DNA of 64,000 bases. It comes from Giardia muris (taxonomy: Eukaryota; Fornicata; Diplomonadida; Hexamitidae). The stretch covers positions 1-64,000 of the forward strand of contig CM016927.1 of NCBI GenBank assembly GCA_006247105.1, given 5' to 3'. Position numbers and translations under genes: made by a program. The notes under the pieces were generated by a model. That model made no database searches and was not told the origin of the DNA. It saw nothing but the letters and a program-made list of their open reading frames with translations. Below, piece after piece: positions 1,640 to 21,076 of the stretch. Every line of letters begins with the position of its first letter. Positions within the stretch are counted from its first letter, which is position 1.

Positions 1640-1899
1640 AACCAAACCTCAGGCGGTCGCAAGAAGCTCCACGCCGTACAGTAGGTCGGAGAAAAGGGTC
1701 GTCAACCCGGGCGAATCGAGGGGAAGCCCCTCAACCCATGCGAGTAGGTGGGATGGACACTTAGAGGCGTTCAGTGCTAGTCCCCCGAGCGCGACAGACC
1801 GGCACTGTCAAGTCAAACAACCGGGAGATCGGAGGCTCGCGACGGGTGTTCCTCTCGTACTGACCCGACGTACTGGACGCATGGAGATGGTCGGTAGGA

Positions 1900-1943
<44 letters not shown>

Positions 1944-1993
1944 CCTTAGACGGGTGAACAATCCGACGCTTCCGCACCGATGCATGCGGACGG

Positions 1994-2037
<44 letters not shown>

Positions 2038-2039
2038 GG

Positions 2040-2083
<44 letters not shown>

Positions 2084-2527
2084 TCACCTCCACGCTCGGA
2101 TTACCGGAGCGGTTGAAGGATCGTTAGGCCACGCTTTCACGGCAAGTACCGGGACAGGGGTACTAGTCAAGTAAGCTTATGCCCTTATGCTCCACGTGAG
2201 GTTTCCGACCTCACTGAGCTTACCATAGGACGCCTGCGGTGTGATCTAGCAGGCGCGCCGCCCCAGCCAAACTCCCCATCCGACCGTGTGCCGATGTAAG
2301 TCGGTGAGTGGGATGGTGAACAACGTCAGGGTATCTCATGGAAGCGGCCTCCCCTGTATGCTGCACCGATGATCCCATCCCCCAGGATCGGATTGGAGTC
2401 AAGCTCAAAAGGGTCTTCTTGCCCCGCCGACCAACACCCGCCCGTTCCCGGGTCTGTAGGTTCACGGAGGCATGACTTGGGACAGTGGGATCCTCGTTGA
2501 TCCATTCATGCACGTCGGAAATTACCC

Positions 2528-2579
<52 letters not shown>

Positions 2580-4300
2580 AGGGCTTGGATGAACCTCTTC
2601 ATGGTGACGGTCATGGCACTGGGCAGAAATCACGTCGTGTACGCATCCATGACGACTGGCACGACGCTATGTTGTTAGTAGACAGTCGGGATCCCTCGGT
2701 CCGTGCCGGTTCTGATCGATCAGAGCCACTCCTTCTCCCGAGGTTACGGAGCTAGTTTGCCGACTTCCCTGAGTCATGGTCTCTCCCGCCTAGAGGCTGA
2801 TCACCTTGGAGTCCTGTTGCGGTTGTGGTACGATCAGGATGGGGGGGGACACAACGGGTTTCATGGATGACCGAAGGGACATGTGATCCATCATGGCCAT
2901 GCACGACCTGAAGTACTACTGGCCATGGGGGGACTGGGGTAGGACGGGATGACTCCCACCATGTGCTTCGTTCATGTACCGTTGTGAAAGGATGTCACCA
3001 AGACCCCATCATACCACCGGGATGTTAACCGGTCAGCCCTATCGTCCTGTGAGGATGACCCCATGGTACGGCGTACACCATCGGACTTAGGATCGTGTCA
3101 CCCGTATCTGATCGACAGGGATACGGAACCCATCTCCACGTCAGGCCTCCAGATGGAGTAATGGCTACTACTACCGAGATCAGCAATCATGACTCGATCC
3201 ACCACGTGTCACCCCATGGCTTCGACTCGATCATGACGACCTCCTACCCGAGACACATCTCGGTCGGGTTCCGATCGTATGCTTCGGCGTGTTCCATTTT
3301 CCGGGCCCCTCGATTCGGCTGGTGGGTTGTTACACACTCCTTAGAGGCTTCCTACTGTTAAGGCCACCTTCCAGCTGTCACGATCGACGGACACCGTTTG
3401 ATCGAGCATACACTTCCACACCTTCCCCCGACTGTCGGTTCATCCCGTCTTGCCCGTCCTGCTTACCAGGAGAGGCCCACTCGACATCAACACTGTTGAG
3501 GGGGCCCACACAAGTTGGCCCCGCTCCACCCTTGTTCATGGTTCGAGGGGTGGATAAGGAGTGACCTCCCTACTCCCACCGATCGTGGCCTTACCTAGGG
3601 CAGCTGTTCATGATGTCGGCTATCCTGGGAGACATTTCGGAGGTAACCAGCTACCAGGTGGTTCGATGAGTCTTTCGCCCCTACACTCAACTCGACCGAG
3701 CGATTTGCACGTCAGCACCGGGATGGGCCTCCACCAGGCTTTCGTCTGGCTTCACCCTGGTCAAGTGTAGATCACCACCTTTCGGGTCTAGGACCGATCG
3801 CTCTGCCCTTGTAAGGGGCCCCTTGAAGTCTTGACTTCCCTTTGCCACATGACTCGCGATCGGTCCTAACTCCTCGGTCCGTGTTTCGAGACGGGCCCGA
3901 CCAATCGATCATCGACAGGTCGGGAGTCGCCTCCCGGGTTCAGGGTCTTTTGACGTGCCTGGGTCGGCATCCTTCTCACCTTTCGTTCGCACTACTTGGT
4001 CCTCTATCGGTCTCGGGGCGGTATTTAGCCTTAGAAGGGTACCACCTCCTCTTCCCTCTACACTCTCAAGCAGAGGTACTCGTCGTTGGGGTTGTGTCCA
4101 TCCCTACGGGACTGGCACCCTCCTTGGTGTGGGTTTCAACCCATCTTCGGGTTTAGGACATCCCCCCAGTCCTCACAACGCTCATCGCTTCGAGGTCGGA
4201 CTACTCCTGGATCGCTCGCCGCTAATCAAGGAATCCCGGTTGGTGTCTTCTCCTGGGCGTACTGATATGCTTAAGTTCCACCCGTCATCTTCATCGGAGT
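1640..4300 (-). rRNA. Large subunit (28S-like) ribosomal RNA
   Basis: The reverse complement reads as an LSU rRNA. The sarcin-ricin loop AGTACGAGAGGAACA lies near 1845-1863, followed by the universal 3' domain segment CTGAACGCCTCTAAG near 1757-1773. Near the 5' side the complement reads TTAAGCATATCAGTACGC (about 4258-4275), the conserved D1 start of eukaryotic LSU. The length of about 2.6 kb is short for a eukaryote and fits Giardia. Both ends are estimates: the 3' end was placed from the distance beyond the sarcin-ricin loop, the 5' end from the ITS2 gap. Frames inside it are shadows. Confidence 0.9.
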
Positions 4301-4349
4301 GGGGGGGGATCCTCATCTCATTCCCCATCGTTCAACCCCTCGAACAACC

Positions 4350-4487
4350 CAGTTCGTAGATCACCCCACCACCCCGATGATCCATTCGAAGATCGATGTC
4401 ACGTGCTTGGACCACATCGAGTATCGTCGTCAGCCACGTCCTTCATCGTCCCCCGAGCCAAGGCATCCACCGGGTCGCGTCATCTCA
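4350..4487 (-). rRNA. 5.8S ribosomal RNA
   Basis: The reverse complement carries the conserved 5.8S segments GGACGATGAAGGACGTGGC and CGATACTCGATGTGGTCC, matching the eukaryotic 'CGATGAAGAACGCAGC' block and its continuation. It sits between SSU and LSU, separated by a very short ITS1 (about 28 bases, 4488-4515) and a short ITS2 (about 50 bases, 4301-4349). Tiny spacers are typical of Giardia rDNA. End points are approximate. Confidence 0.8.
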
Positions 4488-4515
4488 TTGCCTTCATCCT
4501 CGTACCTTCCCTCTC

Positions 4516-5947
4516 GATGGATCCATCCGCAGGTTCACCTACGGATACCTTGTTACGACTTCTCCTTCCTCCAAGCCTCGCGGTTCGTCCCTGTTCGGTT
4601 CATCCCTCCCAGGAGCTCGCCAGAAGACCCAGTCGGTAGGAGCGACGGGCGGTGTGTACAAGGGGCAGGGACGTATCCGGCGTAGATTGATGACCTACGC
4701 CTACTAGACATTCCAGGTTCACGAGGACGTTCCAGTCCACGATCCCAACCACGTGGGGGTTTGATCTCATCAAGCTTCACAACTCGACGTGGTTTCATCC
4801 CCACAGTGTAGTACGCGTGCAGCCCAGGGCGTCTAAGGGCATCACAGACCTGTTATCGCCCCACCTTCCTCCAATTCACCATTGGCGGTCCCATCCAGGT
4901 TAGGGTCTCGCTCGTTGTCGCAGTCAAGCAGACGGCTCAAGCCACGGGCTGTGAACGGCCATGCACCACCACTCGTACGATCACGAAGGTCCTCTCAACC
5001 GTCGATCCTCCGTACGTCTGGGCCTGGTAAGGTGTTCGCGTTGAGTCAAATTGAGCCGCAGACTCCACGTCTGGTGGTACCCCTCCGTCAATGCCTTCAA
5101 GTTCCAGCCTTGCGGCCATACTCCCCCCAGAGCCCGTACCCTGATCGGTTTCCCTTCGATCCTGACGACCTGGCCAGTCTCTCGGTGGCATCGTTTACGC
5201 CCGGGAATACGGTGGTGTCTAATCGCCTTCTCGCCCCCGGGCTTCGTCCTGGTTCGACTGATATGGTCTTGGCAAGTGCCTACGCCTTTGTCTGTCTTGG
5301 TCGGATCATCCTATTTCACCCGTCCCCCACCAATACACATGCCCTTACCCATTCACCTTCATGTCCGTCCCGGGCTTTCTCGTACTCACTCCCGCCTTAA
5401 GCGCTCCTCTTTCCTCCCGGCTGGACGTCTCGACTCCGGACGTTTTAACTGCAACAGCGCCGTACGACGCCTGCCGAGCTGGAATTACCGCGGCTGCTGG
5501 CACCAGACCTTTCCCTCGACTTGTGCTGGGGTCATCTACCCCCCAGTCTTCCCATTTCATGGGATCCCCCGTTGCTGCCTCACGCCTTCACGCATTGGGC
5601 AAGTTCCGCGCCTGCTGCCGTCCTTGGATGTACGGGCCGTCTCTCAGGCCCGTTCTCCGGAGTCAAACCCTGATCCTCCGCCAGGCATCATCCCCTCCGT
5701 AGACCACTACTCTACCGACTAGGTAATACCTCGGAACCTCATCCGGGCATTCGCTCCATCGCGTGCTTTCCTTCCCCGCTCTTGAGCACTCGTCTTGGCG
5801 CTGGGTTGCCAGCGGTATCCGTCTAGCCTTCACCCCCGGTCAGACTCGTACCGTTGTACCGAGCCGTCCGCCACTTCATACCTCGTGTCCGCTTGCATGG
5901 CTTTTGTCCTTGGGGGTAGCGTAGTACTCCGGCAGGATCAACCGGAT
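4516..5947 (-). rRNA. Small subunit (16S-like) ribosomal RNA
   Basis: The reverse complement begins with the universal eukaryotic 5' end CATCCGGTTGATCCTGCC at 5947. It ends with AAGTCGTAACAAGG... GAACCTGCGGATGGATCC at about 4516, the universal 3' helix 44/45 region. The conserved ACGGGCGGTGTGTAC motif is readable at about 4640-4660 in complement, and the 530-loop segment GCCAGCAGCCGCGGTAATTCC has its equivalent near 5485-5505. The total length of about 1432 bases is unusually short for a eukaryote and is a hallmark of Giardia. The base composition seems less extremely GC-rich than that known for G. intestinalis rRNA, which points to a muris-like species; that is an inference. Confidence 0.95.
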
Positions 5948-7797
5948 GGTCTGTCGATCGGTCGATCCGTCGGTTGTGGGCCGGCCCTTCCGTCCTCTCG
6001 TCGTACGATCCACACTCGTCGTCGGGTGGGTCTTCTCGTCCCGGTCCGGCCTCGTCGTGCCTTCCCTATAGTAGCCGAAAATCGGCCTCCATCTTTGGGC
6101 CACTTCTTGGGGGTCCGTGGGTGGGGGTTGTGGTCCTGCACGGCACTTCGTTCCTCTCCGTCTCCCTTCCCCATCCCCTGTGTCCTTCCTTTCTCTCCTG
6201 GAAGCCCTCATCGTCCGGAAGTGAGGAGACTCGGATCTAAGTGATGCCAGATGCAGTCCGTGAATGTGCTCGAGGGGACCGTAGCAGCTGGGTTCATACG
6301 TCGGGATGCCTGGACAGGATAGACCTGCCCATTGTGGGTGCTATCAGGCCTCAGGTTGGACCGGACGTCTCGAGGTCGTAGTATGAGACCCCGGAAGCAC
6401 TCGTGATGGGGCTGCCGTTCTGGGTCGAGACGGGAAGGCCGGAAGGGAGGTGAGCCCATTCCCTGTGTGCGGCCTCCAGGCACGTGTTTCGGTCATCCCC
6501 ATGTCCCCGGGCCTCCTGGTCGTATCTCAAGGAGGTCCTCGATGACGTCCGGTCGTCACGGCACGTCAGAGGCCTGGTTGGGAGACGCCTCCCCGAGCCC
6601 CCTCGTGGGACGGTCCGGTCGGTCCTGTACGTGCAGGCGTCTAGGAGGTGGGAAGGGTAGGATGCCACTCTATACGCGTACCTACCAGTCTGAAGACGTC
6701 CGTCTTGCTCCGGCCCTCCCACCACTTGACCTGCCTCCGATTCCCTGCATGTTGCTGACAGGATGACCTCGGATGAAGAGTCGTCCGAGGTGGAGATAAC
6801 GGAGACCTCCTTGGCGTCCGTGTTGGGAAGGGGTCAGACGGACGACCGGGAGCACGTCCCTGCAGGAGGAGCTCCCCAATGGCAAAGGTCTCGGGGCGTT
6901 CGTACTCGACCTCCTCCTTGGGCGTGTGATGACAGCCCCACTCGAACGATATCCGTGCAAGGGTGGACAAGGAGGTCCTCGTGGCTTCAAGAAGGGTTCC
7001 AGAAGGAGGCAGGGATCCGACGACAATGGGACGATCAGAGTCGGAGGCCGAGTTGGGGCGAGGAGGGGACGAACCAGTGGCTGGTGTATCAGGCTCAGGG
7101 TTCGAGAGCGAGGGGATCCATAAGGTCGGACAGGACTCGTGCTCCATCCGATGATCGAACTCAGAGGTTCCATGTCCCCCCGACGTCCCCAGCTGATGGT
7201 GGACCTCCCGATGCCACCACAGTCGGGAAGGAGGTAGAACGTGTCCTTCCACGAACCGACTGACACCCACTCCGTTAGACTCGGATGGTCTTCCCTGTGT
7301 CTGAGGACCCGTCGTCGTGGATGCTGTCATCCCCGATGATTCTCAGTGCATTGTGGGACGACCAAGGAGGATACTGTCCATGGTGGCGTCGACCCGTGCA
7401 CCTCACGCTCCTCGAACAGGCTCCAGTTCGTGGCACGGCCCCACAAGCTGGAGGGCGTGAACTCCGGACAGCCACTTCCGTCACGAGTCCGGGGCAGTGA
7501 GCAGCCGGCATTGGCTCACACAGCCATGCACGACCTGGTGCCCTTCCCTGCTCTCCATCCATGCCCTCAGGCAGATTCAGGAGGCCGGCCCTCCTTCATG
7601 GAGACGGGTTGGGATCAACCGGGGCTCATGGTCGTCCTCTCGTCCCTCCCGTGATCCCGTTCACTCCTCTTGATCGAAGGACGAAGACCGGGGCACTGAA
7701 CGATGACCGTTGATCCCGGAGGCCCATAGGAGGACCGACGGGGACTCCTTCATCCAGCCGGGCCTTCCGACCTCCTGCCCCTGCCTCCGGACGCAGG
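5948..7797. other. rDNA upstream flank and unexplained gene-free stretch
   Basis: The first 300 bases here lie immediately upstream of the SSU rRNA and should contain its promoter, but I recognise no defined element. From about 6240 to 7797 there are several overlapping long open frames on both strands (for example 6641-7330 minus against 6763-7263 plus). None has an A-rich initiator, a recognisable domain or amino-acid composition unlike its competing frame, so I do not call them genes. No copy of the C-rich spacer at 1-1639 is visible here, so the rDNA array appears to end on this side. Confidence 0.5.
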
Positions 7798-9807: not shown

Positions 9808-9858
9808 TTTTGAGAATCAGGCATTAACTCTCCTCGGACTGAAGCTCCCCCTCCCATA

Positions 9859-9943
9859 CCATCTGACACTCTGGGCATCCAACCGCTACCAACGACCTGC
9901 CCCGAGGACGGGAGGCCCACAGCTCTCCTCGGGGCGCTCGTTG
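9859..9943 (-). repeat. Upstream block shared with ankyrin gene at 21207 (copy 1)
   Basis: About 85 bases upstream of the ankyrin gene start at 9807 are nearly identical, read on the minus strand, to 21077-21160 on the plus strand upstream of the ankyrin gene at 21207. A shared core word is TCCTCGGGGCAGGTCGTTGG. The two copies face each other across the VSP array as an inverted pair. The block could carry regulatory sites or be a footprint of segmental duplication. Confidence 0.85.
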
Positions 9944-9985
9944 AGGCCTCATCGCCCCCATAAGCCGGCCCGATCGCATCCATAA

Positions 9986-10529
9986 CCCCTGGAAGCCGTT
10001 GAGGCAGGCCGTGCAGACGTCCTTGCTGTCTGGACGGGATCCACAGTTGGGGAAGGTGCACTTCGTGCAGACGACGGGAGAAGAGGAGGAAGAGTGGTGG
10101 CCCTCGAGGCACTCCGAGCACGTGAAGGCGTTCGAGGCGTAGGTGCATGTACCGCAGTTCTCTTTTCCTCCATTTGTCGCATCGCTACAGAGGTAGAGGG
10201 TGCTGTCCTTGACGAAGGTGATGGCATCGGTAGTTGGAGCCGCCTTGCAGGTTCCGTTCTTTGTATCCTGGAGGGCGGAGCACAGCTTGTTCCCAGGCGC
10301 CTTGGTCTGGTCATAACAGCCTCCCTCGAACAGGAAGTAGTCACCTGTTCCACATCCTGTGCAGGCACCATTGGCACAAGTAGCATCCGAGACAGTGCTT
10401 GGATCCGCACAAGCCCCATTGATCGGGGCCTGACTCGTGTCACTGCACTTCTTGCAGAACTCTCCATCAACCCCCGGGATGGTGAAGGTCGAACCACCCC
10501 CGTCTCATCCTTCCCCCTTCACCATTCAC
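9986..10529 (-). pseudogene. Truncated VSP cassette (5' half only)
   Basis: In the minus frame closed by a TGA at 10505-10507, the sequence encodes an N-terminal VSP half: FTIPGVDGEFCKKCSD, then PINGAC, CGTGDYFLFEGGCY and a run of CxxC pairs down to VCTACLNGFQG near 9986. There VSP similarity stops abruptly and unrelated sequence leads into the ankyrin upstream block. No start codon, signal peptide, transmembrane helix or CRGK tail is present. The junction sequence after the preceding cassette's stop (TGA-GTGAATGG) is kept, but downstream of it the frame is displaced. It resembles the N-terminus of the cassette at 18128-19759. It is a broken end unit of the array. Confidence 0.8.
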
Positions 10530-12314
10530 TCACTTCCCCCTGCATCCGAACCACCAACCGAGGAAGCCCCCGAGACCTCCCAGGACCAGAAGGACGGCAA
10601 TGACGATCCCCGCAATGGCACCCCCCGAGAGCCTGGAAGAACTGGAGGAGGGGGGAGAGGGGCAGGCATTGTTGGTGGGAGTGGAGCCGTCCCAGCAGAG
10701 GGCGCACTTCCCATTTGGACAGGAGGTGCACCCACTGGGGCAGGCCGTGCAGTCGGAGGGGCCGGTCACAGTAGAGTTGCTGTAGTACCCAAGGGCGCAG
10801 GAGCTGCAGGCGGTCGATGAAGTGCAGGCCCCGCACTCCTTCGGACAGGCCGTGAAGGCGCCTGAGGATGCATCGAGGATGAAGGGGGCGTTGGGGGCGG
10901 CAGCAGTGCACTTCCCGTTGGAGGCCGCTGAGCAGAGGAGGCTCCCGACCGAAGTCCCAGTGGTCGAAGATACAGGATAGCAGCCGCCCTCGAAGAGGAA
11001 GTAGTTGGGAGAATTGGTCACAGTCGGATTCTTGCAGCTCCCGCACCTCGTGGCACTGGACGAGACGGGGTCGGTCCCGGCCTCGTTGAGGCAGATGTCG
11101 TTGGCGCCTGCCGCCCTCGTCGTCTTCTTGTTGACGGTGGCCAGGGGCGTGCAGGTCCCGTCAAATGGAACGAAGCCGGAAGGGCACTCCTTGCAGACGG
11201 TCGTGCTCCCAACAAGAAGCTGGTTCTTCAGAGGGCAGATCTTGAGGTCCGCCGCCTTCTGGGGAGAGAAGCATCCGCCCTGATAGGCCAGGAAGCCGTT
11301 GAGGCAGGAGGTGCAGGAGCCGGAGGACCCCGTGCAGACCTTCGTGTTCGCATCGACGCACTCTCCGTTGATCGGGTTCTTCCCAGTTGGACACCCAACA
11401 CAGACGAGCCCCGAGCCGAGGCCGAAGTCGAGGCAGCTCTCACAGTTGTCGGGGCACTTGCTGCAGGTCGTGATGGAGAGGGAAGAGTTGTAGGTCGGGC
11501 CGAAGCCGCTCTTGCACGCCTCGCACTGGCTCTTGTCAGTATTGCAGGCTCCACAGTTCTGGAGGTCGCAGGCCGTGCAGGAGACGGAAGAAGAGCCGGC
11601 GGCTGTGGTAGAGTGGTAGCCGTCGAGGCACTCTGTGCATGTGGCGACATTGGTGTCGCAGGTCTTGCAGCCAGTGACGGTGCAGGCAGTGCAGGTCTTG
11701 GCGCCGCTGTCGTGCTTGTAGCCGGGCATGCAGGCGGAGCATGTGGTGGCAGTGGCATCCGTGCACGTCTTACAACCCGCGCTGCACTTCGTGCACTGGT
11801 TCCCGTTGCTGGTGTCGAGGAAGTACTCGTCCGCACAACCTGAGCAGGTGTCAACATCACTCGCCTGGACACAGTTAGAACACTTGGTGGTGTCGGTGCA
11901 GGAGACGCAGGTCCCGTCAGCTTTCGGAAGGAAGTTCTCGTTGCACGTCAAGCACTTCGTGTTGTCGTCGTTGCACGTCTGACAGTTCTGGATGGTGCAT
12001 GCAGAGGGAGGAGTTGGAGCCGGAGTCGAGGCCACACAGTTCGACTTGTCATCTGAGAGGGTGAAGCCGGGGTTGCAGGAAGCACACTTGTTGTCAGAAC
12101 TCGCCGTGGCACAGTTGGTGCAGGAGGTGCAGGAGTAGCAGTTGGAGCCGTCCGAGTCCTTGAGGTAGTCCGCATCGCACGTCTCGCACTTCGTGTCATC
12201 ACCATCGACGCATGCCTGACAGTTCTGTACAGTGCACGTCGTCCTCGCCCTTATGCACTCCCCCGTCCCGGCTCCTTCCGTACACGAGAGGTCTCTCGCG
12301 TTCTTCCCTCCCCT
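10530..12314 (-). CDS. VSP cassette A (no start codon, likely silent)
   Basis: Open frame of 594 residues from a TGA at 12315-12317 to the stop at 10530. It begins GGKNARDLSCTEGAG, runs through many CxxC pairs (e.g. CQAC, CETC, CYSC, CTNC) and two GGCY motifs (FEGGCY, YQGGCF-type), and ends in a Ser-rich linker, a transmembrane helix and the tail GCRGK. VSPs coat the trophozoite surface and vary antigenically. There is no ATG with signal peptide at the 5' end. Compared with cassettes C and D, one T is missing in the junction (GAGGGAAG instead of GAGGTGAAG), which puts this unit out of phase with its upstream neighbours. Its C-terminal 90 residues resemble those of C, D and E, with point differences such as SPPSSSSSR. 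Confidence 0.7.
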   Translation of the reverse strand, partial: RGGKNARDLSCTEGAGTGECIRARTTCTVQNCQACVDGDDTKCETCDADYLKDSDGSNCYSCTSCTNCATASSDNKCASCNPGFTLSDDKSNCVASTPAPTPPSACTIQNCQTCNDDNTKCLTCNENFLPKADGTCVSCTDTTKCSNCVQASDVDTCSGCADEYFLDTSNGNQCTKCSAGCKTCTDATATTCSACMPGYKHDSGAKTCTACTVTGCKTCDTNVATCTECLDGYHSTTAAGSSSVSCTACDLQNCGACNTDKSQCEACKSGFGPTYNSSLSITTCSKCPDNCESCLDFGLGSGLVCVGCPTGKNPINGECVDANTKVCTGSSGSCTSCLNGFLAYQGGCFSPQKAADLKICPLKNQLLVGSTTVCKECPSGFVPFDGTCTPLATVNKKTTRAAGANDICLNEAGTDPVSSSATRCGSCKNPTVTNSPNYFLFEGGCYPVSSTTGTSVGSLLCSAASNGKCTAAAPNAPFILDASSGAFTACPKECGACTSSTACSSCALGYYSNSTVTGPSDCTACPSGCTSCPNGKCALCWDGSTPTNNACPSPPSSSSSRLSGGAIAGIVIAVLLVLGGLGGFLGWWFGCRGK

Positions 12315-12325
12315 TCACCATTCAC

Positions 12326-14326
12326 TCACTTCCCCCTGCATCCGAACCACCAACCGAGGAAGCCCCCGAGACCTCCCAGGACCAGCAGGACGGCGATGAC
12401 GATCCCCGCAATGGCACCCCCCGAGAGCCCCGAGGAGGACGAAGAAGACCCCGAGACGCTGTCGGGAGCACAGACCGAGGGAGTGCCGGTCGGGGCCTGT
12501 CCGTTCGCACAGAGGGTGCAGGCGGTGGCTCCTGTGCACCCCACGCAGTTATCGATGACCGTCGAGCAAGCCTTGCAGGAGTTGGAGTCGGAGTAGTGTC
12601 CGAAGACACAGCCTCCGGTGCACGTCTTCCCGTCTGTTCCGCAGTCATTGCATCCATTCGAGCAGGGGACGAGGCCCTTCGAGCCGTCCTTGTAGAAGCC
12701 GGAGTTCGAGGCGGGCGTCGTGCAGCCTCCATTGTTGTCGGCCGTGGTGCAGACCTTCTGACCGAGTGTGTCATCGGTCGAGTAGCACCCCCCGTTGAGG
12801 AGGAAGTACTTCCCGTTGCTGTCATTGCACCCCGAGCAGGCCGTCCTCCCCCCGTTGGGGACGCAGTTCGACTCTCCCAACCGGGACGACGGGAGGGCCG
12901 TGCAGGTCCCGTTGATGGGGACGCTTCCAGTCGGACACTCGGAACAGACGAGGCTCTCCCCGATAAGGAAGGTCTTCCCGTCCGCACAGAGCCCGAAGGC
13001 GTCCGAGTTCCGAGGGCTGTAGCAACCACCGCTGGCCGGCATGAAGCCCCCCTTGCAGCCCGAGCAGACCCCACTCGAGGCTGTGCAGACCCCGGCGTAT
13101 CCTGTCGCCTTCTCGCACCTCCCGTTGATCGGAACGTCGTTCGTTCCGCACTTCGTCGCCACGGCCCGGCCCCCGAGAAGCGCGCAGGTCACAACTCCTT
13201 GCAGGCCCCCGTCCTCGAGGCAGGACAGGAGGCTCGTCCCGTTCAGATAGAGGCCATCTCCGGGCTTGGTGCAGAGGCCCCCGGAGGCGGACGAGCACTG
13301 GTCGGAGTATGTGGCGGTCGTGTAGCAGCCCCCCTTGAAGAGAAAGTGGGTGTCGGCACACTTCGTGCAGGCGCCCCCGCTCTTCTCGGTGCATGCAGTA
13401 GCGCTCTCTGTGCACGCCTCGTCGACGGGATACTTCCCCGTCTTGCACTGGGAGCAGACGACCTTCGTCCCGAAGGCGGCGTACTTCTCGCAGTCCTGAA
13501 CCCCGTCGTGCTGGAGACATCCGATGATCTCCGTCCCCCTCTTGACCGTCAGGGCGTCGTTCCCGCAGGCCGTGCACTGAACCCCTCCGTCCTTGGCCGT
13601 GCATGTCTGACAATTCTCGACACCTCCTGGGGCCGTCGAGCAACTGAGGCAGGCCGATGAGGCGATGACGAAGCCATCGAGACAGACTGAACAGGAGGAG
13701 GCCGTGCACGTCTTGCAGCCCGAGGAGCAGGCCTTGCATGATTTGTCGGTCGAGTCGAGGAAGTAGCCAGACTTGCACTCTGAGCAGGCGGAGGAGGAGC
13801 ACGTCTTGCAATTGGTGTCGGTGCAAGCTGTGCATGTATTGCTATCGAAGTAGTAGCCCTCGTCACAAGAGTCGCAGTGAGTGGCCGAGGTCGAGCACGT
13901 CTTGCAGGTCGAGTCGCAGAGAGAGCAAGCATCAGTCGTCGCAGTCGCAGCAGCATTCGGGAAGAGCCCGTCTCCGCACGTCGTGCACTTGAAGGTGTCA
14001 GTGGCATCCGTTGCCGTGCAGACGGGGCTGCCGGCCTTAGCCTCGTAGCAGCCCCCCTGGAAGAGGACGTAGCCATTTCCGCAGTTCCCGCACTTCGTTG
14101 CACTGTCCTCAAGCTCAGTGCTGGCATCCTTCTTGCATGCTGCTTTAGTAGTGTCGTCCACTGCTGCGCAGTTTCCATTGATGGGGACGTTCCCCGCATC
14201 GCACTCCGTGCAGACCTGCGTGCTCCCGAACTTCAGGCACTTGTTCGTTCCGCAGTTCGCTATGGCAGGACTGCAGGCAGCCAGAGCGGGAGCGGCTCGA
14301 GCCTTCACCTCCCCTTCACCATTCAC
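12326..14326 (-). CDS. VSP cassette B (no start codon, likely silent)
   Basis: Open frame of 666 residues directly following the stop of cassette C; its first codon is GTG. It starts NGEGEVKARAAPALAAC and continues with the VSP N-terminal pattern CTECDAGNVPINGNC, then about a dozen CxxC-rich modules, several GGCY motifs (FQGGCY, FKGGCY, LNGGCY), and ends in a Ser linker, transmembrane helix and CRGK. The segment before the transmembrane helix (CANGQAPTGTPSVC) differs from that of A, C, D and E, so the interior is divergent while the tail is conserved. Mature VSPs begin at about this residue after signal cleavage; the signal-peptide codons are absent. Expression as it stands is unlikely. Confidence 0.7.
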   Translation of the reverse strand: MNGEGEVKARAAPALAACSPAIANCGTNKCLKFGSTQVCTECDAGNVPINGNCAAVDDTTKAACKKDASTELEDSATKCGNCGNGYVLFQGGCYEAKAGSPVCTATDATDTFKCTTCGDGLFPNAAATATTDACSLCDSTCKTCSTSATHCDSCDEGYYFDSNTCTACTDTNCKTCSSSACSECKSGYFLDSTDKSCKACSSGCKTCTASSCSVCLDGFVIASSACLSCSTAPGGVENCQTCTAKDGGVQCTACGNDALTVKRGTEIIGCLQHDGVQDCEKYAAFGTKVVCSQCKTGKYPVDEACTESATACTEKSGGACTKCADTHFLFKGGCYTTATYSDQCSSASGGLCTKPGDGLYLNGTSLLSCLEDGGLQGVVTCALLGGRAVATKCGTNDVPINGRCEKATGYAGVCTASSGVCSGCKGGFMPASGGCYSPRNSDAFGLCADGKTFLIGESLVCSECPTGSVPINGTCTALPSSRLGESNCVPNGGRTACSGCNDSNGKYFLLNGGCYSTDDTLGQKVCTTADNNGGCTTPASNSGFYKDGSKGLVPCSNGCNDCGTDGKTCTGGCVFGHYSDSNSCKACSTVIDNCVGCTGATACTLCANGQAPTGTPSVCAPDSVSGSSSSSSGLSGGAIAGIVIAVLLVLGGLGGFLGWWFGCRGK

Positions 14327-16225
14327 TCACTTCCCCCTGCATCCGAACCACCAACCGAGGAAGCCCCCGAGACCTCCCAGGACCAGCAGGACGGCGATGA
14401 CGATCCCCGCAATGGCACCCCCCGAGAGCCCCGAGGAGCTGGAGGAGGGGGGAGGGGGGCAGGCATCCTTGGTGGGAGTGGAGCCGTCCCAGCAGAGGGT
14501 GCACTTCCCACTTGGACAGGAGGTGCACCCACTGGGACAGGCCATGCAGTCGGAGGGGCCGGTCACAGTAGTAGAGTTGTAGTACCCAAGGGCGCAGGAG
14601 CTGCAGACGGTCGAGGAGGTGCACTTCCCACATCCAGCAGGACAGGGGCTGAAGGTCTTCGTGTTTGAGTCGTATATGATGGGGGAGCCACTGGCAGGGG
14701 TATCGCACTTCCCATCAGTGGCCGCTGAACAGAGCTTACTCCCGACCGAAGTCCCAGGATTGGTGGCCGCAGGATAGCAGCCCCCCTCGAAGAGGAAGTA
14801 GGTCGTCGAGCAGTTCTCGCACATCGTGGCGGTCCCGTCGACAGGAGTCGTCCCGTCGGCCTTCTTGCAGACGTCGTTGGTGGTCGCCCTCGAGATGGTC
14901 GAACTGACCTCGAGGCACGTCCCGTCGATCGGAACGCTTCCCTTCTTGCACTCCTTGCACACCAGGGCCTCCCCGACGAGAAGCTGGTTGCTCCTGGCAC
15001 AGAGGCCCGTCTTGTCCGCATCGAAGGAGGAGAGGCAGGAGGAGTTGGAGAGCATGCATCCGTTGAGGCAGGACGTGCAGGAGAAGGACGTGGAGTAGGT
15101 GCAGGTGTTGCAGTTCGCCTTCCCGTTCGTCGCGTCCCCGCAGAGATAGAGCTTCCCGTCCTTGAGGAAGGCGATGGAGGTCGGGGTCGAACACGCTCCA
15201 GAGGAGGGGGTTGCACTGCACAGCTTGTTCCCGGGCTCCTTTGACTGGGCATAGCACCCCCCGTTGAAGAGGAAGTGGGTGCTCGAGGACCCACAGGAGT
15301 TGCAGACCCCGACCTGAGTTCCATTTTGGCTCGTCGTGCATGAGCTGGTCGGATCGGCCCCCCCTTCCACCTTTATACACCTCCCGTCGACGGGGGCGAG
15401 CCCCTTCCCGCACTTACCGCAGAGGACCTCGGACCAGCCCGGGACGGAGAAGGACTCGAGGCAGATCCCGAGGCTCTTGAGGCTCTCGGGGCTGAAGCAG
15501 CCGTCGTGGAAGAAGAGGCTCCCCTCCTTGCAGGCCGTGCACTTCCCGGCGCTGGAGGCAGGGGTGCAGGAGGAGGCACTGTCCTTGAGGACGCACTTCC
15601 CGTTGACGGGGACGTGAGTGTCAGCATTGCACTCGAGACACACGAAGCTGGTCCCGATCTTCATGCAGCTCTTGCAGTTCTCGTTCGATGAGCAGTTGAC
15701 GCAGGAGGTGATCGTTGGTGCATCGAGGCTCTCCACGACAGGCCCGAATCCGGAGGCGCACTCCGTGCAGGTCGGCTTGTCGGCGGCGGGGGAGGTGCAG
15801 GTCTTGCAGTTGGGAACCCCGTTCGTCTTATCATCACAGGTGTAGAGGCCTGAGGGGTTGGAGTCGCTCCCCTTCACGAAGATGCCCGTCGCAGTATCAG
15901 CCCTCTTTGAGCACTTCCCGTTCGATGCCGTCTGGCAGAGAGCAGCGCCCTCGCCTCCTGCCTGGTTGTAGCACCCCCCGTAGAAGAGGAAGTAGGTCCC
16001 TGTGCATGCCGTGCAGACACCAGTGGTTGTGTCCTTCGTACAATCATCGGCTGTTGGAGCCTTGCACGTCCCGTCGATCGAGGCCTGGTTCGTGTCACTG
16101 CACTCCTTGCAGACCTTCCCCAGCGTCCCGAGGTCGAGGCAGCTCCCCGTCTTGCAGTCGCCTGATGCCGTCCCTTCCGTACACGTGAGGTCTCTCGCGT
16201 TCTTCACCTCCCCTTCACCATTCAC
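14327..16225 (-). CDS. VSP cassette C (near-identical to D, likely silent)
   Basis: Open frame of 632 residues in the same reading frame as B and D, separated from each only by a TGA. It begins NGEGEVKNARDLTCTEG and has the typical pattern VCKECSDTNQASIDGTC, FYGGCY, FNGGCY and FEGGCY motifs, repeated CxxC pairs, a PPPPSSSSS linker, a transmembrane helix and GCRGK. It differs from D at only a handful of positions: SGDCKTG against SGNCKTG, AALCQTASNGKCSK against ATLCKTASNGKCSE (with one extra Ser in D), and PSDCMAC…TPTKDAC against PSNCTAC…TPTNDAC. This implies a very recent duplication or conversion. No initiator or signal peptide is present. Confidence 0.75.
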   Translation of the reverse strand: MNGEGEVKNARDLTCTEGTASGDCKTGSCLDLGTLGKVCKECSDTNQASIDGTCKAPTADDCTKDTTTGVCTACTGTYFLFYGGCYNQAGGEGAALCQTASNGKCSKRADTATGIFVKGSDSNPSGLYTCDDKTNGVPNCKTCTSPAADKPTCTECASGFGPVVESLDAPTITSCVNCSSNENCKSCMKIGTSFVCLECNADTHVPVNGKCVLKDSASSCTPASSAGKCTACKEGSLFFHDGCFSPESLKSLGICLESFSVPGWSEVLCGKCGKGLAPVDGRCIKVEGGADPTSSCTTSQNGTQVGVCNSCGSSSTHFLFNGGCYAQSKEPGNKLCSATPSSGACSTPTSIAFLKDGKLYLCGDATNGKANCNTCTYSTSFSCTSCLNGCMLSNSSCLSSFDADKTGLCARSNQLLVGEALVCKECKKGSVPIDGTCLEVSSTISRATTNDVCKKADGTTPVDGTATMCENCSTTYFLFEGGCYPAATNPGTSVGSKLCSAATDGKCDTPASGSPIIYDSNTKTFSPCPAGCGKCTSSTVCSSCALGYYNSTTVTGPSDCMACPSGCTSCPSGKCTLCWDGSTPTKDACPPPPSSSSSGLSGGAIAGIVIAVLLVLGGLGGFLGWWFGCRGK

Positions 16226-18127
16226 TCACTTCCCCCTGCATCCGAACCACCAACCGAGGAAGCCCCCGAGACCTCCCAGGACCAGCAGGACGGCGATGAC
16301 GATCCCCGCAATGGCACCCCCCGAGAGCCCCGAGGAGCTGGAGGAGGGGGGAGGGGGGCAGGCATCGTTGGTGGGAGTGGAGCCGTCCCAGCAGAGGGTG
16401 CACTTCCCACTTGGACAGGAGGTGCACCCACTGGGGCAGGCCGTGCAGTTGGAGGGGCCGGTCACAGTAGTAGAGTTGTAGTACCCAAGGGCGCAGGAGC
16501 TGCAGACGGTCGAGGAGGTGCACTTCCCACATCCAGCAGGACAGGGGCTGAAGGTCTTCGTGTTTGAGTCGTATATGATGGGGGAGCCACTGGCAGGGGT
16601 ATCGCACTTCCCATCAGTGGCCGCTGAACAGAGCTTACTCCCGACCGAAGTCCCAGGATTGGTGGCCGCAGGATAGCAGCCCCCCTCGAAGAGGAAGTAG
16701 GTCGTCGAGCAGTTCTCGCACATCGTGGCGGTCCCGTCGACAGGAGTCGTCCCGTCGGCCTTCTTGCAGACGTCGTTGGTGGTCGCCCTCGAGATGGTCG
16801 AACTGACCTCGAGGCACGTCCCGTCGATCGGAACGCTTCCCTTCTTGCACTCCTTGCACACCAGGGCCTCCCCGACGAGAAGCTGGTTGCTCCTGGCACA
16901 GAGGCCCGTCTTGTCCGCATCGAAGGAGGAGAGGCAGGAGGAGTTGGAGAGCATGCATCCGTTGAGGCAGGACGTGCAGGAGAAGGACGTGGAGTAGGTG
17001 CAGGTGTTGCAGTTCGCCTTCCCGTTCGTCGCGTCCCCGCAGAGATAGAGCTTCCCGTCCTTGAGGAAGGCGATGGAGGTCGGGGTCGAACACGCTCCAG
17101 AGGAGGGGGTTGCACTGCACAGCTTGTTCCCGGGCTCCTTTGACTGGGCATAGCACCCCCCGTTGAAGAGGAAGTGGGTGCTCGAGGACCCACAGGAGTT
17201 GCAGACCCCGACCTGAGTTCCATTTTGGCTCGTCGTGCATGAGCTGGTCGGATCGGCCCCCCCTTCCACCTTTATACACCTCCCGTCGACGGGGGCGAGC
17301 CCCTTCCCGCACTTACCGCAGAGGACCTCGGACCAGCCCGGGACGGAGAAGGACTCGAGGCAGATCCCGAGGCTCTTGAGGCTCTCGGGGCTGAAGCAGC
17401 CGTCGTGGAAGAAGAGGCTCCCCTCCTTGCAGGCCGTGCACTTCCCGGCGCTGGAGGCAGGGGTGCAGGAGGAGGCACTGTCCTTGAGGACGCACTTCCC
17501 GTTGACGGGGACGTGAGTGTCAGCATTGCACTCGAGACACACGAAGCTGGTCCCGATCTTCATGCAGCTCTTGCAGTTCTCGTTCGATGAGCAGTTGACG
17601 CAGGAGGTGATCGTTGGTGCATCGAGGCTCTCCACGACAGGCCCGAATCCGGAGGCGCACTCCGTGCAGGTCGGCTTGTCGGCGGCGGGGGAGGTGCAGG
17701 TCTTGCAGTTGGGAACCCCGTTCGTCTTATCATCACAGGTGTAGAGGCCTGAGGGGTTGGAGTCGCTCCCCTTCACGAAGATGCCCGTCGCAGTATCAGC
17801 CCTCTCTGAGCACTTCCCGTTCGATGCCGTCTTGCAGAGAGTAGCGCCCTCGCCTCCACTGGCCTGGTTGTAGCACCCCCCGTAGAAGAGGAAGTAGGTC
17901 CCTGTGCATGCCGTGCAGACACCAGTGGTTGTGTCCTTCGTACAATCATCGGCTGTTGGAGCCTTGCACGTCCCGTCGATCGAGGCCTGGTTCGTGTCAC
18001 TGCACTCCTTGCAGACCTTCCCCAGTGTCCCGAGGTCGAGGCAGCTCCCCGTCTTGCAGTTGCCTGATGCCGTCCCTTCCGTACACGTGAGGTCTCTCGC
18101 GTTCTTCACCTCCCCTTCACCATTCAC
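16226..18127 (-). CDS. VSP cassette D (near-identical to C, likely silent)
   Basis: Open frame of 633 residues between the TGA of cassette E and its own TGA at 16226-16228. Domain order is as in cassette C: short N-terminal NARDLTC segment, CxxC-rich body, Ser-rich linker, one transmembrane helix and a 5-residue cytoplasmic tail GCRGK. The last roughly 85 residues, from GYYNSTTVTGPSNC onward, match cassette E exactly, whereas the rest matches cassette C almost exactly. D is therefore a mosaic boundary between two sequence classes. The first codon after the upstream stop is GTG, and no ATG with a signal peptide is present. Confidence 0.75.
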   Translation of the reverse strand: MNGEGEVKNARDLTCTEGTASGNCKTGSCLDLGTLGKVCKECSDTNQASIDGTCKAPTADDCTKDTTTGVCTACTGTYFLFYGGCYNQASGGEGATLCKTASNGKCSERADTATGIFVKGSDSNPSGLYTCDDKTNGVPNCKTCTSPAADKPTCTECASGFGPVVESLDAPTITSCVNCSSNENCKSCMKIGTSFVCLECNADTHVPVNGKCVLKDSASSCTPASSAGKCTACKEGSLFFHDGCFSPESLKSLGICLESFSVPGWSEVLCGKCGKGLAPVDGRCIKVEGGADPTSSCTTSQNGTQVGVCNSCGSSSTHFLFNGGCYAQSKEPGNKLCSATPSSGACSTPTSIAFLKDGKLYLCGDATNGKANCNTCTYSTSFSCTSCLNGCMLSNSSCLSSFDADKTGLCARSNQLLVGEALVCKECKKGSVPIDGTCLEVSSTISRATTNDVCKKADGTTPVDGTATMCENCSTTYFLFEGGCYPAATNPGTSVGSKLCSAATDGKCDTPASGSPIIYDSNTKTFSPCPAGCGKCTSSTVCSSCALGYYNSTTVTGPSNCTACPSGCTSCPSGKCTLCWDGSTPTNDACPPPPSSSSSGLSGGAIAGIVIAVLLVLGGLGGFLGWWFGCRGK

Positions 18128-19759
18128 TCACTTCCCCCTGCATCCGAACCACCAACCGAGGAAGCCCCCGAGGCCTCCCAGGACCAGAAGGACGGCGATG
18201 ACGATCCCCGCAATGGCACCCCCAGAGAGCCCCGAGGAGCTGGAGGAGGGGGGAGGGGGGCAGGCATCGTTGGTGGGAGTGGAGCCGTCCCAGCAGAGGG
18301 TGCACTTCCCACTTGGACAGGAGGTGCACCCACTGGGGCAGGCCGTGCAGTTGGAGGGGCCGGTCACAGTAGTAGAGTTGTAGTACCCCACTGAGAGGCA
18401 CTTGGTGCAGTCCGTCCCACTCGTGCAGGTGGCGCACCCGGGGGCGCAGGAGACGAGGACGGTTCCATTGAGGTAGAGGCCCGAGGCGGGATTGACAGCT
18501 GTGCAGACTCCATTAGAGGCCGAGGTGCAGGCGCTCTTCCCGACCTCCGTGGAGGCGTTGTAGCAGCCCCCGTTGAGGAGGAAGAACTGAGTAGCCGGGG
18601 TCCCGGTCACGTCCTGGCACTTCCCGCACCTCGTGGAGGACGCGTCGGGGGCGCTTCCGTCCTCCTTCTGGCAGATCTGGGTCGCCCTCGTCACGTTCGT
18701 CGAGGCGACCAGAAGGCATTCTCCGTTGATCGGGACGAAGCCCGGCTTGCACTCGGAGCAGACCGTCGTGTTCCCGACCAGGAACTGCTTCTCCTTCGCA
18801 CAGACGCCCAGCTCGGCGGCCTTGAAGGTCGAGTAGCATCCCTCGAGGTAGGGGACGTATCCATTGAGGCAGGACGTGCAGGTGCCGGAGGAGTCGGTGC
18901 AGACCTTGTCGTTCTTATCCACGCACGTCCCGTCGATCGGGGCCTGACCAGTCGGACACTCGGTGCAGACGAGCCCCGGACCGAGGTTGGTGCAGGAGGT
19001 GCAGTTCTTGGGACAGGAGTCGCAGGACGTGATGGCAAGGGAGGAGCTGTAGGTCGGGCCGAAGGAGGGGAGGCAGGCCGAACAGGTCTTCTCGTTCGTG
19101 TCGCACGTCTTGCAGTCCTTGATGGTGCAGGCCTTGCAGGTCGAGTCAACAAGGCCGAAGCCGGGGCTGCAGGCGGAGCAGGTGTCGGCAGCACTCACCT
19201 GGGCACAGTTGGAGCACTTGGAGGTGTCACTGCATGTCTCGCAGCTCCCGTCCCCCTTGGGGAGGTAGTCCTTGGCACAGGAGGTGCACTTGAAGGTGGT
19301 CGAGTCATAGGTGCAGGTCTCGCAGTTCGCCTTCCCGTTCGTGCTGTCACTGCAGAGGTAGAGGATGTCACTCATGACGAAGGTGACCGCGTCCTTGTCC
19401 GGGACGGCCGTGCACTTCCCCCCGGTGGCCGTCTTGCAGAGCTTGTTCCCGGGAGAGGTGTCCTTCTTGTAGCACCCACCATAGAAGAGGAAGTAGTCAC
19501 CCGTCCCACACGACTCACACGTGCCATCGGCAGTCGACTTCTGAGTACAGTCACTGCCTGGAGTCCCACACTTCCCATCGATCGGGGCCTGACTCGTGTC
19601 ACTGCACTTCTTGCAGAACTCCCCCTCAACCCCCGGGATGGTGAAGTTCGAATCAGCTGCACACGCCCCCGTAGCTCGAGCCTTCACCTCCACCGAGCCC
19701 TCGAGGACGTCGATCTCCGATGCTGCTCTCCCGGAGGAGCGGTCGATCGTCCCGAGCAT
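18128..19759 (-). CDS. VSP cassette E (5'-most unit; start doubtful)
   Basis: Up to 543 residues if the in-frame ATG at 19759 is used. The part similar to other cassettes begins at VEVKARATG (about 19699). It has the N-terminal VSP motif FTIPGVEGEFCKKCSD…APIDGKC, GGCY motifs (FYGGCY, LNGGCY), many CxxC pairs, a Ser linker, a transmembrane helix and GCRGK. The 20-odd residues after the possible ATG are charged and hydrophilic, not a signal peptide, and the ATG lacks the A-rich initiator seen at other genes here. The frame stays open further upstream without VSP similarity. This is the upstream end of the array; if any unit were transcribed from flanking DNA it would be this one, but I see no promoter. 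Confidence 0.65.
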   Translation of the reverse strand: MLGTIDRSSGRAASEIDVLEGSVEVKARATGACAADSNFTIPGVEGEFCKKCSDTSQAPIDGKCGTPGSDCTQKSTADGTCESCGTGDYFLFYGGCYKKDTSPGNKLCKTATGGKCTAVPDKDAVTFVMSDILYLCSDSTNGKANCETCTYDSTTFKCTSCAKDYLPKGDGSCETCSDTSKCSNCAQVSAADTCSACSPGFGLVDSTCKACTIKDCKTCDTNEKTCSACLPSFGPTYSSSLAITSCDSCPKNCTSCTNLGPGLVCTECPTGQAPIDGTCVDKNDKVCTDSSGTCTSCLNGYVPYLEGCYSTFKAAELGVCAKEKQFLVGNTTVCSECKPGFVPINGECLLVASTNVTRATQICQKEDGSAPDASSTRCGKCQDVTGTPATQFFLLNGGCYNASTEVGKSACTSASNGVCTAVNPASGLYLNGTVLVSCAPGCATCTSGTDCTKCLSVGYYNSTTVTGPSNCTACPSGCTSCPSGKCTLCWDGSTPTNDACPPPPSSSSSGLSGGAIAGIVIAVLLVLGGLGGFLGWWFGCRGK

Positions 19760-21076
19760 TGCGGGTCGTCCGGGTTCAGACCTCAGGCATGACGATCCCA
19801 TTGGGCGGTGCGAAGACCGATCCTCCTGGAGCAGACCTGGTTGGAAGCTGCTGGATGGTCCTGAGTTGTGTGGTCTCGCACCAAGGTCTGGGATGAGAGG
19901 GGAGGGGCCTGCCAGGCTGCGGTCGAGGAGGCGGGCTCTCTGACGACGCCTCACCAAGTCCTCTCCCCATCTGTCGGCAGGACTCCGAGCTCCTGGACGT
20001 CTGGTGCGTCCTCCCAGTGGTCCCGTCCCTGACCACGGTGGTCTGAAGGGCGTGAGGAGCCACAAACCGGGCCCCTGATCGAAGTCCTTCGTTCGTCAAC
20101 GATCTGCAGGACGGGCCTCCTCTCGTGGCCATGAGCACACGTCCACTACCTCTTCCATATCTCCTCGGATGCTCCCGTCCCTCCAAACTCATACTTGGTG
20201 GGCAACGAGGACAGACAGCACGGCCTTCTTGTCGTCCTCTACCCCGAGGGAAGGCTCGAAGTGGTCATGATGGGGACTGCTTCTCAACTTCCGGAGAGGA
20301 GTAGTGGACGAGGTGATCCCGACGTCATGCCTCTTCGACTCCTTGAACTAGCCAGGACTGAGAGTCCTCACGAAGGTCACGACCTCGAGGAGGAGCGGGG
20401 AGAGTCGTCTGTAATCCCAGAACCACGGGCCGAGATGAGTCGACAGGAAGGGATGTCCGTCATCCAGCACAAGGGCCCTGGCCTCTCGATCCCAAGGACC
20501 TTGCAGGCACGGTTCCCGGTGCTCGTCGTGTGGTCCCATCTGAAGAACTGAGTCATGAGACACCTGTTGATGGAACAGGGGTGATGAGGACTGCAGTGCA
20601 ACGTGAGGTGCCCACAAGAACGCCGTGGAGTGGACGGATGAGCCGTCTCGTGCAGGAATGGGACCACGGGACAGGCCACCGGTGTGAAAGGACGGACGGG
20701 AGAGGGGAGCAGCAGGTCGTCATCAGGCCGGGCAGTCTGGAAGGACTGAAGGGCTATCGTGGGCACCACTGGTTCTGGACAGCAGTGATGGCCTCTGGTG
20801 CAGGACGGCTCGTTGTCGTCCCAGGCCGTGAGCCCGCCCACATTGGACGACTCCGGCTCCTCGTTGGCAGAGATGGGACGTGTCCCTCCCCAACGGCCAG
20901 GGAGAGAGGACGACCATAAGTCGGGGGCGTCTCCCTTCTGAGTCTGGATGCGAGTTGCACGTCAGCCAGCTTGGGCCCGCGCCTCCCCGGAGGGGCCGGG
21001 AGACTCTCTGCCCTGCCATTGAGTGGGTGGGGGGCTATAAGGGGAGACTGATGACCAGTGGGAGCTCATCCAGGGA
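19760..21076. other. Gene-free stretch between VSP array and ankyrin gene
   Basis: About 1.3 kb without a convincing gene. Open frames overlap on both strands (for example 20377-20841 minus and 20530-20919 plus), but none has an A-rich initiator, a domain or cysteine spacing I recognise. The GC-rich composition explains the open frames. Since it lies directly 5' of the VSP array it is where a promoter for the array would have to be. I see no AT-rich initiator adjoining cassette E. Confidence 0.4.

What the first reader, a model, noticed from the sequence alone, without database searches (positions are those of the whole stretch)
9986..19759. Head-to-tail VSP cassettes that lack start codon, signal peptide and promoter: candidate silent donor store
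Five full and one truncated VSP units follow each other without any intergenic DNA. Each begins where a mature VSP begins after signal cleavage (NARDLTC or VKARA…) and ends at CRGK-stop. Every other gene in this window has an A/T-rich initiator next to its ATG, and none of these units does. Complete bodies with conserved ends but no expression signals are what one expects of donor cassettes for gene conversion into an expression site carrying promoter and signal peptide, as in trypanosome VSG stores. For Giardia this would differ from the well-known post-transcriptional control of self-sufficient VSP genes.
Basis: partly seen in the sequence, partly recalled or inferred. Interest (0 to 1): 0.95.

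Follow-up and report, generated by a model that had tools for sequence, protein, structure and literature searches.

The report
Silent Giardia surface-antigen cassette array
Near a chromosome end, the mouse parasite Giardia muris keeps a row of surface-coat gene bodies without the parts needed to make and export the protein; this is a known, published type of silent reserve that swaps pieces with complete coat genes elsewhere in the genome.

Summary
The array is real. It lies on the minus strand near the end of a Giardia muris contig: five CRGK-stop VSP units (PF03302) and one 3'-truncated unit, joined by 20-37 bp linkers, without signal peptides. Corrections: the outermost unit has an in-frame ATG (19759), and lack of an A-rich initiator is not diagnostic, since type-1 complete VSP genes lack it too. 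The phenomenon and the donor-store idea are published: Xu et al. 2020 (G. muris psiVSP arrays, essentially untranscribed, exchanging with complete VSPs) and Adam et al. 2010 (array members as recombination cassettes). What I add is detail. Complete VSP genes keep a constant upstream region and leader found in none of 73 sampled silent units. Downstream, 34 of 169 40-codon blocks match a silent unit at 97% or more, 7 of them a window unit. Exchange looks segmental, not whole-cassette. Silent units are not decaying freely: 72 of 80 evaluable units are open to CRGK-stop and 4 carry a stop or frame change; pN/pS is 0.41-0.49 for recent changes, rising to 0.75 for old ones. Donor direction is inferred, not shown. 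Already known; modest interest.

The parts
18128..19684 (-). Unit A, head of the array: silent VSP body from KARATGAC to CRGK-stop; in-frame ATG upstream at 19759, no signal peptide
   Evidence: 96% to C3:1283725-1285285 near the other end of the same contig
16226..18127 (-). Unit B, silent VSP body (633 codons counted from the previous stop), no ATG before KNARDLTC
   Evidence: 99% to unit C, about 91% to the next best of the scored relatives
14327..16225 (-). Unit C, silent VSP body (632 codons), tandem copy of unit B
   Evidence: 3 synonymous and 7 nonsynonymous differences from B
12326..14326 (-). Unit D, silent VSP body (666 codons) with KARAAPALAAC start
   Evidence: 99-100% identical copies on C34, C33 and C2
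10530..12314 (-). Unit E, silent VSP body (594 codons); its 3' three quarters are shared at about 95% with signal-bearing VSP genes on C1 and C5
10044..10504 (-). Unit F, VSP body cut off at its 3' end (no transmembrane segment or CRGK); its low-coordinate end is approximate (10044-10137 by different alignments); runs into flank shared with other array ends
18107..18130 (-). Example junction: TGA stop of unit A and the 21-bp linker leading in the same frame into unit B
19685..20700 (-). Flank before the head unit, 96-97% identical to the flanks before the arrays at C1:102 kb and C2:30 kb
1627..5948 (-). rRNA genes (LSU, 5.8S, SSU) between the array and the contig end

Best explanation
This is one of the chromosome-end psiVSP arrays of Giardia muris. 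The units have a VSP body, transmembrane tail, stop codon and a polyadenylation-like signal, but no leader. They are not expressed where they lie. They exchange segments by gene conversion with about two dozen complete VSP genes, whose constant upstream region and leader stay in place, and so act as a reservoir of sequence for new surface proteins. Shown here: anatomy, absence of the leader from the sampled silent units, mosaic sharing with complete genes, mostly open frames. From the literature: near-absence of transcripts. Inferred: that net flow is from array to complete gene, and that this serves antigenic variation.
For: All 94 transmembrane motifs found in the window and L001-L040 run in frame to CRGK-stop. 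The leader is constant among complete genes (type 1, 9 distinct, medians: -200..-1 95-96%, CDS 1-100 96%) while CDS 401-1200 has medians of 67-71% and the last 111 bp 95%. For the first 40 codons of 14 distinct complete genes no one of 73 silent units exceeds 49% identity; in later blocks 34 of 169 reach 97% or more, 7 of them with a window unit. Silent-site test: unit E against SP_C1_2374154 has 98.4% silent identity in codons 156-428 and 83.7% outside it, 0 of 2000 permutations; 18 of 70 window-unit by complete-gene tests were reached by 0 of 1000 permutations. 72 of 80 evaluable silent units are open. Xu et al. 2020 report essentially no transcription in three life stages, and exchange.
Against: Direction of exchange is not determined; complete genes could equally feed the arrays. 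Only one of five window cassettes shares most of its body with a complete gene; unit D shares only a 73% 5' piece and the tail. 5 of 14 complete genes have no 97% block in the sampled units. In many type-1 genes the conserved part reaches to about CDS 400 (median 95% for 201-400), so the edge of the constant part is not sharp. The 70 tests are not independent (B and C are near copies, complete genes are related), and some tracts are only moderately similar (for example 76% against 46%). Uneven divergence along the gene could mimic conversion. I had no RNA data.
Confidence: 0.73

Rival explanations
1. Relic array: old tandem duplicates left from birth-and-death evolution at chromosome ends, with sequence sharing that is incidental ectopic recombination and has no donor role.
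For: No expression signals; unit F is truncated; arrays and their flanks recur between chromosome ends as blocks; B and C look like a simple tandem duplication. Adam et al. name remains of discarded vsp genes as an alternative. pN/pS rises to 0.59-0.60 at dS 0.08-0.3 and 0.75 at dS 0.3-0.8, the last within the neutral range.
Against: 72 of 80 evaluable units are open. Across the 71 open units then aligned, about 4812 distinct changes would give about 143 stop codons if unconstrained; among all 80 I saw one nonsense lesion (in two matching copies) and two frame changes. pN/pS is 0.46 for pairs with dS below 0.03, 0.49 for 0.03-0.08 and 0.41 for private changes, against a neutral 0.72-1.04.
Confidence: 0.17
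2. The units are expressed after all: a missed start, a spliced leader exon, or read-through of the single in-frame TGA between units.
For: Some junctions keep frame across the TGA; 15 of 57 internal silent units have an in-frame ATG upstream, in several cases inside the previous unit's polyadenylation-like signal; coding constraint persists.
Against: Frame and ATG are not conserved from junction to junction; 0 of 73 units have an intron-acceptor-like motif in -150..+20 (pattern from recall, no positive control run); no signal peptide; published near-absence of transcripts.
Confidence: 0.05
3. Assembly artefact: collapsed or mis-joined repeats produced the array.
For: Units B and C are 99% identical; similar units lie on small contigs C33, C34 and C35.
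Against: Different units with distinct bodies alternate; the same arrangement occurs in many places of this assembly and is described in the G. muris genome paper. No reads were examined.
Confidence: 0.03

Closest known systems
Giardia muris linear psiVSP arrays (Xu et al. 2020, PMC7641422; abstract, sections 9 and 14, passages)
   Same: VSP bodies without signal peptide, tandem, near chromosome ends, tails toward the terminus, GCRGK end, essentially untranscribed, exchanging with complete VSPs; authors compare them to T. brucei and Pneumocystis
   Different: Nothing essential. They speak of relaxed evolutionary pressure and drift on the silent copies; I find mostly open frames and pN/pS of 0.41-0.49 for recent changes
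Giardia lamblia vsp linear arrays (Adam et al. 2010, PMC2996952; passages)
   Same: Downstream members lack the initiator; authors propose cassettes for recombination with expressible vsp genes, or discarded remains
   Different: There only 3 of 218 complete sequences lacked an in-frame ATG, and telomeric vsp genes are rare
Pneumocystis jirovecii msg-I system (PMC10622565; passages)
   Same: Subtelomeric silent alleles, constant leader at the expressed copy, mosaics, mostly open frames (94.4% of 1007 alleles)
   Different: There a single-copy promoter and a 33-bp junction element at the start of every allele; here at least 24 dispersed leader-bearing genes and no common junction word
Trypanosoma brucei VSG archive (PMC3708902; passages)
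   Same: Silent subtelomeric copies, segmental gene conversion, donors that may be pseudogenes
   Different: One active telomeric expression site (recalled); 43 of 103 donors there were pseudogenes, whereas units with a stop or frame change are few here

Membership tests
Giardia VSP family | Cysteine-rich body matching PF03302, conserved transmembrane tail and CRGK end | tested here: met
   PF03302 for 6 of 6 units; CRGK-stop for 5 of 6, the sixth being cut off
Complete (expressible) VSP gene | N-terminal signal peptide | tested here: not met
   By inspection and by matching to the two leader types found in 24 genes; no signal predictor was run
G. muris linear psiVSP array (Xu et al.) | More than 3 VSP units without signal peptide, in tandem, near a chromosome end, tail-end toward the terminus | tested here: met
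   Six minus-strand units about 10 kb from the contig start; rRNA genes outside. That the contig end is the chromosome end is inferred; no telomere repeat was searched for
G. muris linear psiVSP array (Xu et al.) | Not transcribed | not testable with these tools
   Literature statement only
Silent donor store for gene conversion | Sequence shared in mosaic fashion with leader-bearing genes | tested here: met
   strong for unit E, segmental for A-C, weak for D
Silent donor store for gene conversion | Net flow from the silent copy to the expressed gene | not testable with these tools
   Needs lineages or isolates; one genome cannot show direction
Pneumocystis-type msg switching | A common junction element at the start of donors and of the expressed gene | tested here: not met
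   Longest exact word shared between the first 180 nt of a complete gene and the first 150 nt of any of 73 silent units is 16-41 nt in 13 of 14 genes and 78 nt in one, at varying places
T. brucei-type VSG switching | One dedicated active expression site | tested here: inconclusive
   At least 24 dispersed leader-bearing genes make a single site unlikely; no expression data seen

The most novel reading that the evidence does not exclude
The silent cassettes are not drifting pseudogenes: the archive is kept coding-competent by selection although its members are not expressed in place, because segments cycle between leader-bearing genes and arrays faster than they decay. This would contradict the published 'relaxed pressure, genetic drift' reading.
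Probability: 0.35. Interest if true: 0.5.

Novelty: already known. Interest (0 to 1): 0.3.

Why it matters
If the donor role holds, a parasite best known for switching between self-sufficient coat genes also keeps a silent reserve at its chromosome ends. The constant-leader, exchangeable-body layout gives a simple way to read exchange events from genome sequence, and the mostly open frames raise a testable question about how a silent archive stays usable.

Tried and rejected
Whole-cassette replacement at a fixed 5' junction: no shared junction word; transitions lie at various internal codons. Read-through of the in-frame TGA: the frame is kept at only some junctions. A spliced leader exon: 0 of 73 acceptor-like motifs. 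Lack of an A-rich initiator as the mark of silence: the printed type-1 complete VSP genes lack it too. The first dN/dS script failed on an aligner setting and was rerun. Six literature searches were made, the last aimed at selection on silent VSPs. Of papers I saw: PMC7641422 abstract, sections 9 and 14 and passages; PMC2996952, PMC10622565 and PMC3708902 passages; all others as listings with the start of the abstract.

Rows dropped before counts. One search gave 95 CRGK-stop units in the window and L001-L040: 13 with a leader, 82 without. Of the 82, two were cut by the end of the fetched stretch and left out; one of these proved to be a leader-bearing gene (C2:535673). That leaves 80. One search listed 11 without a 5' anchor or short, the two cut ones included; of the other 9, one search showed one (C1:4187) open in one frame, 4 that are 5'-truncated fragments or bare tails, 2 with a frame change and 2 matching copies with one internal stop. 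So 72 of 80. Units without a CRGK tail, such as unit F, cannot enter these counts. Of the later fetches L041-L048, 7 of 8 transmembrane motifs lie in parsed CRGK-stop units; the one in L042 (C4:538347-540225) does not, although its body aligns in one frame without stops up to residue 604 of 625. It is in none of the counts and speaks slightly against my reading. Two later silent units (C3:683244, C3:111060) are in the 73 but not in the 80; C1:4187 is in the 80 but not in the 73. The stop-codon expectation is on the 71 open units. In one search only disjoint pairs were pooled (10 of 22 and 15 of 51 in the two lowest bins). Whole-genome DNA searches scored only part of their candidates (19 of 169, 40 of 266, 265 and 230). 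The sample covers parts of C1-C4 and two complete genes of C5; small contigs and most of C5 were not read.
Full report
Identity and prior knowledge. The window is the first 64 kb of contig C3 of a 9.74-Mb, 52-contig genome. I identify it as Giardia muris from the GCRGK tail, the array layout, and coordinates that fit the published pair table: the tail-to-tail pair on C1 ending at 1965656 and 1967315 is 1658 bp apart with a 594-aa product, as in Xu et al. Table 3. Xu et al. 2020 (PMC7641422; abstract, sections 9 and 14, passages) describe 26 complete VSP genes and 239 VSP homologues without signal peptide, 183 of these in 17 linear arrays, with an array at or near nine of ten main contig ends, tails toward the terminus, essentially untranscribed in three life stages, and in genetic exchange with complete genes. 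They compare this to T. brucei and Pneumocystis. Adam et al. 2010 (PMC2996952, passages) proposed for G. lamblia that downstream array members may be cassettes for recombination, or discarded remains. The finding and its interpretation are therefore in print.

The array itself. Six minus-strand units lie at about 10044-19684. Five end in CRGK-stop; the sixth is cut off. All match PF03302. Linkers are 20-37 bp and carry AGTGAAT at the stop. No unit shows a signal peptide. The head unit has an in-frame ATG at 19759; the four internal complete units have none. Toward the contig end follow an ORF that looks ankyrin-like by eye (7798-9807) and rRNA genes at 1627-5948. The flank before the head unit is 96-97% identical to flanks of arrays at C1:102 kb and C2:30 kb, and the flank after the truncated unit recurs at about 84% after VSP units on C1 and C2, so whole blocks appear to have been copied or exchanged.

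Relatives of each cassette. Unit B is 99% identical to unit C and about 91% to the next best of the scored relatives. Unit D has 99-100% copies on C33, C34 and C2. Unit A is 96% to C3:1283725, near the other end of the same contig. Unit E shares 95% over 1347-1403 bp with leader-bearing genes on C1 and C5. In 50-codon blocks its identity to those two genes is 48-75% over the first 150 codons and 90-99% thereafter. Against 14 distinct leader-bearing genes, B and C reach about 84% over 794 bp, A about 95% over its last 262 bp, and D only 73% over a 415-bp 5' piece plus the tail.

Anatomy of the complete genes. Two leader types occur in at least 15 and 9 genes, 24 in all (Xu et al. count 26). I compared 14 distinct ones from 18 loci. 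In type 1 (9 distinct) the 200 bp upstream and the first 100 bp of CDS have median identities of 95-96%; 201-400 is still 95%, 401-1200 is 67-71%, the last 111 bp 95%. Against 73 silent units, the first 40 codons never exceed 49% identity; of 169 later blocks of 40 codons before the tail, 34 match a silent unit at 97% or more, 7 of them a window unit; 5 of the 14 genes have no such block. With silent positions only and the last 45 codons left out, unit E and SP_C1_2374154 have 98.4% identity in codons 156-428 and 83.7% outside it (0 of 2000 permutations); against SP_C5_1016133 the test is weaker (p 0.022), and against two other genes tried in detail it is not significant (p 0.15 and 0.27). In all, 18 of 70 window-unit by complete-gene tests were reached by 0 of 1000 permutations. 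About 0.07 would be expected by chance were the tests independent, which they are not; single cases are not individually secure.

Are the silent units decaying? All 94 transmembrane motifs found in the window and L001-L040 run in frame to CRGK-stop; in the later loci 7 of 8 do. Of 80 evaluable units without leader, 72 are open from their 5' part to the stop; 4 are 5'-truncated fragments, 2 have a frame change, 2 matching copies have one internal stop. The 71 open units then aligned, in three types, differ by 2153, 1164 and 1495 distinct changes (states minus one per column, if the alignment is right), for which about 63, 34 and 45 stop codons would be expected without constraint. Pooled over disjoint pairs, pN/pS is 0.46 for dS below 0.03 (54 synonymous, 79 nonsynonymous), 0.49 for dS 0.03-0.08, then 0.59, 0.60 and, at dS 0.3-0.8, 0.75; neutral change gives 0.72-1.04 under the spectra tried. 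So the signal is clear for recent and weak for old divergence. Changes private to one silent unit give 0.41 (63 synonymous, 82 nonsynonymous), those private to leader-bearing genes 0.30 (26 and 26). Binomial P for the private silent class is 7e-7 to 7e-4, for the most recent pairs 4e-5 to 9e-3, by spectrum. Limits: many differences may have arisen in expressed genes and been copied in; some 'private' changes may exist in unsampled units; and private changes alone predict only 4 to 5 stops (my arithmetic), so the private layer does not exclude some neutral decay.

Reading. The sequence supports a silent reservoir that exchanges segments with leader-bearing genes, the leader staying with the recipient. 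It does not support whole-cassette replacement at a fixed junction. Direction and benefit are inferred. What goes a little beyond the papers I saw is the constant-leader layout in numbers and the coding constraint on recent changes, which sits poorly with the published phrase about relaxed pressure. Six searches did not list a paper that, by title or start of abstract, tests this; I did not open the others, and most subscription papers are not held.

Noticed in passing
window 1627-5948: LSU, 5.8S and SSU rRNA genes on the minus strand between the VSP array and the contig end.
   Followed up: partly
G000 C5:531458-555751: About a dozen VSP units at an exact spacing of 2017 bp inside C5, likely the recent internal array that Xu et al. 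mention.
   Followed up: no
L005, L007, L011: Type-1 complete VSP genes share a conserved context (ccggtagaATG) that is not A-rich, unlike most other genes tested in the window.
   Followed up: partly
window 9600-10120: The flank after the truncated unit recurs at about 84% after other VSP units at C1:108.5 kb and C2:125.3 kb, so array ends look like shared blocks.
   Followed up: partly
L019, L020: Some internal array units have an in-frame ATG formed inside the previous unit's polyadenylation-like signal (MVKGGGKAR, MVRGGKNAR).
   Followed up: partly
L042 (C4:538347-540225): A lone VSP unit with a transmembrane motif whose frame does not end in a CRGK-stop that the script recognised.
   Followed up: partly
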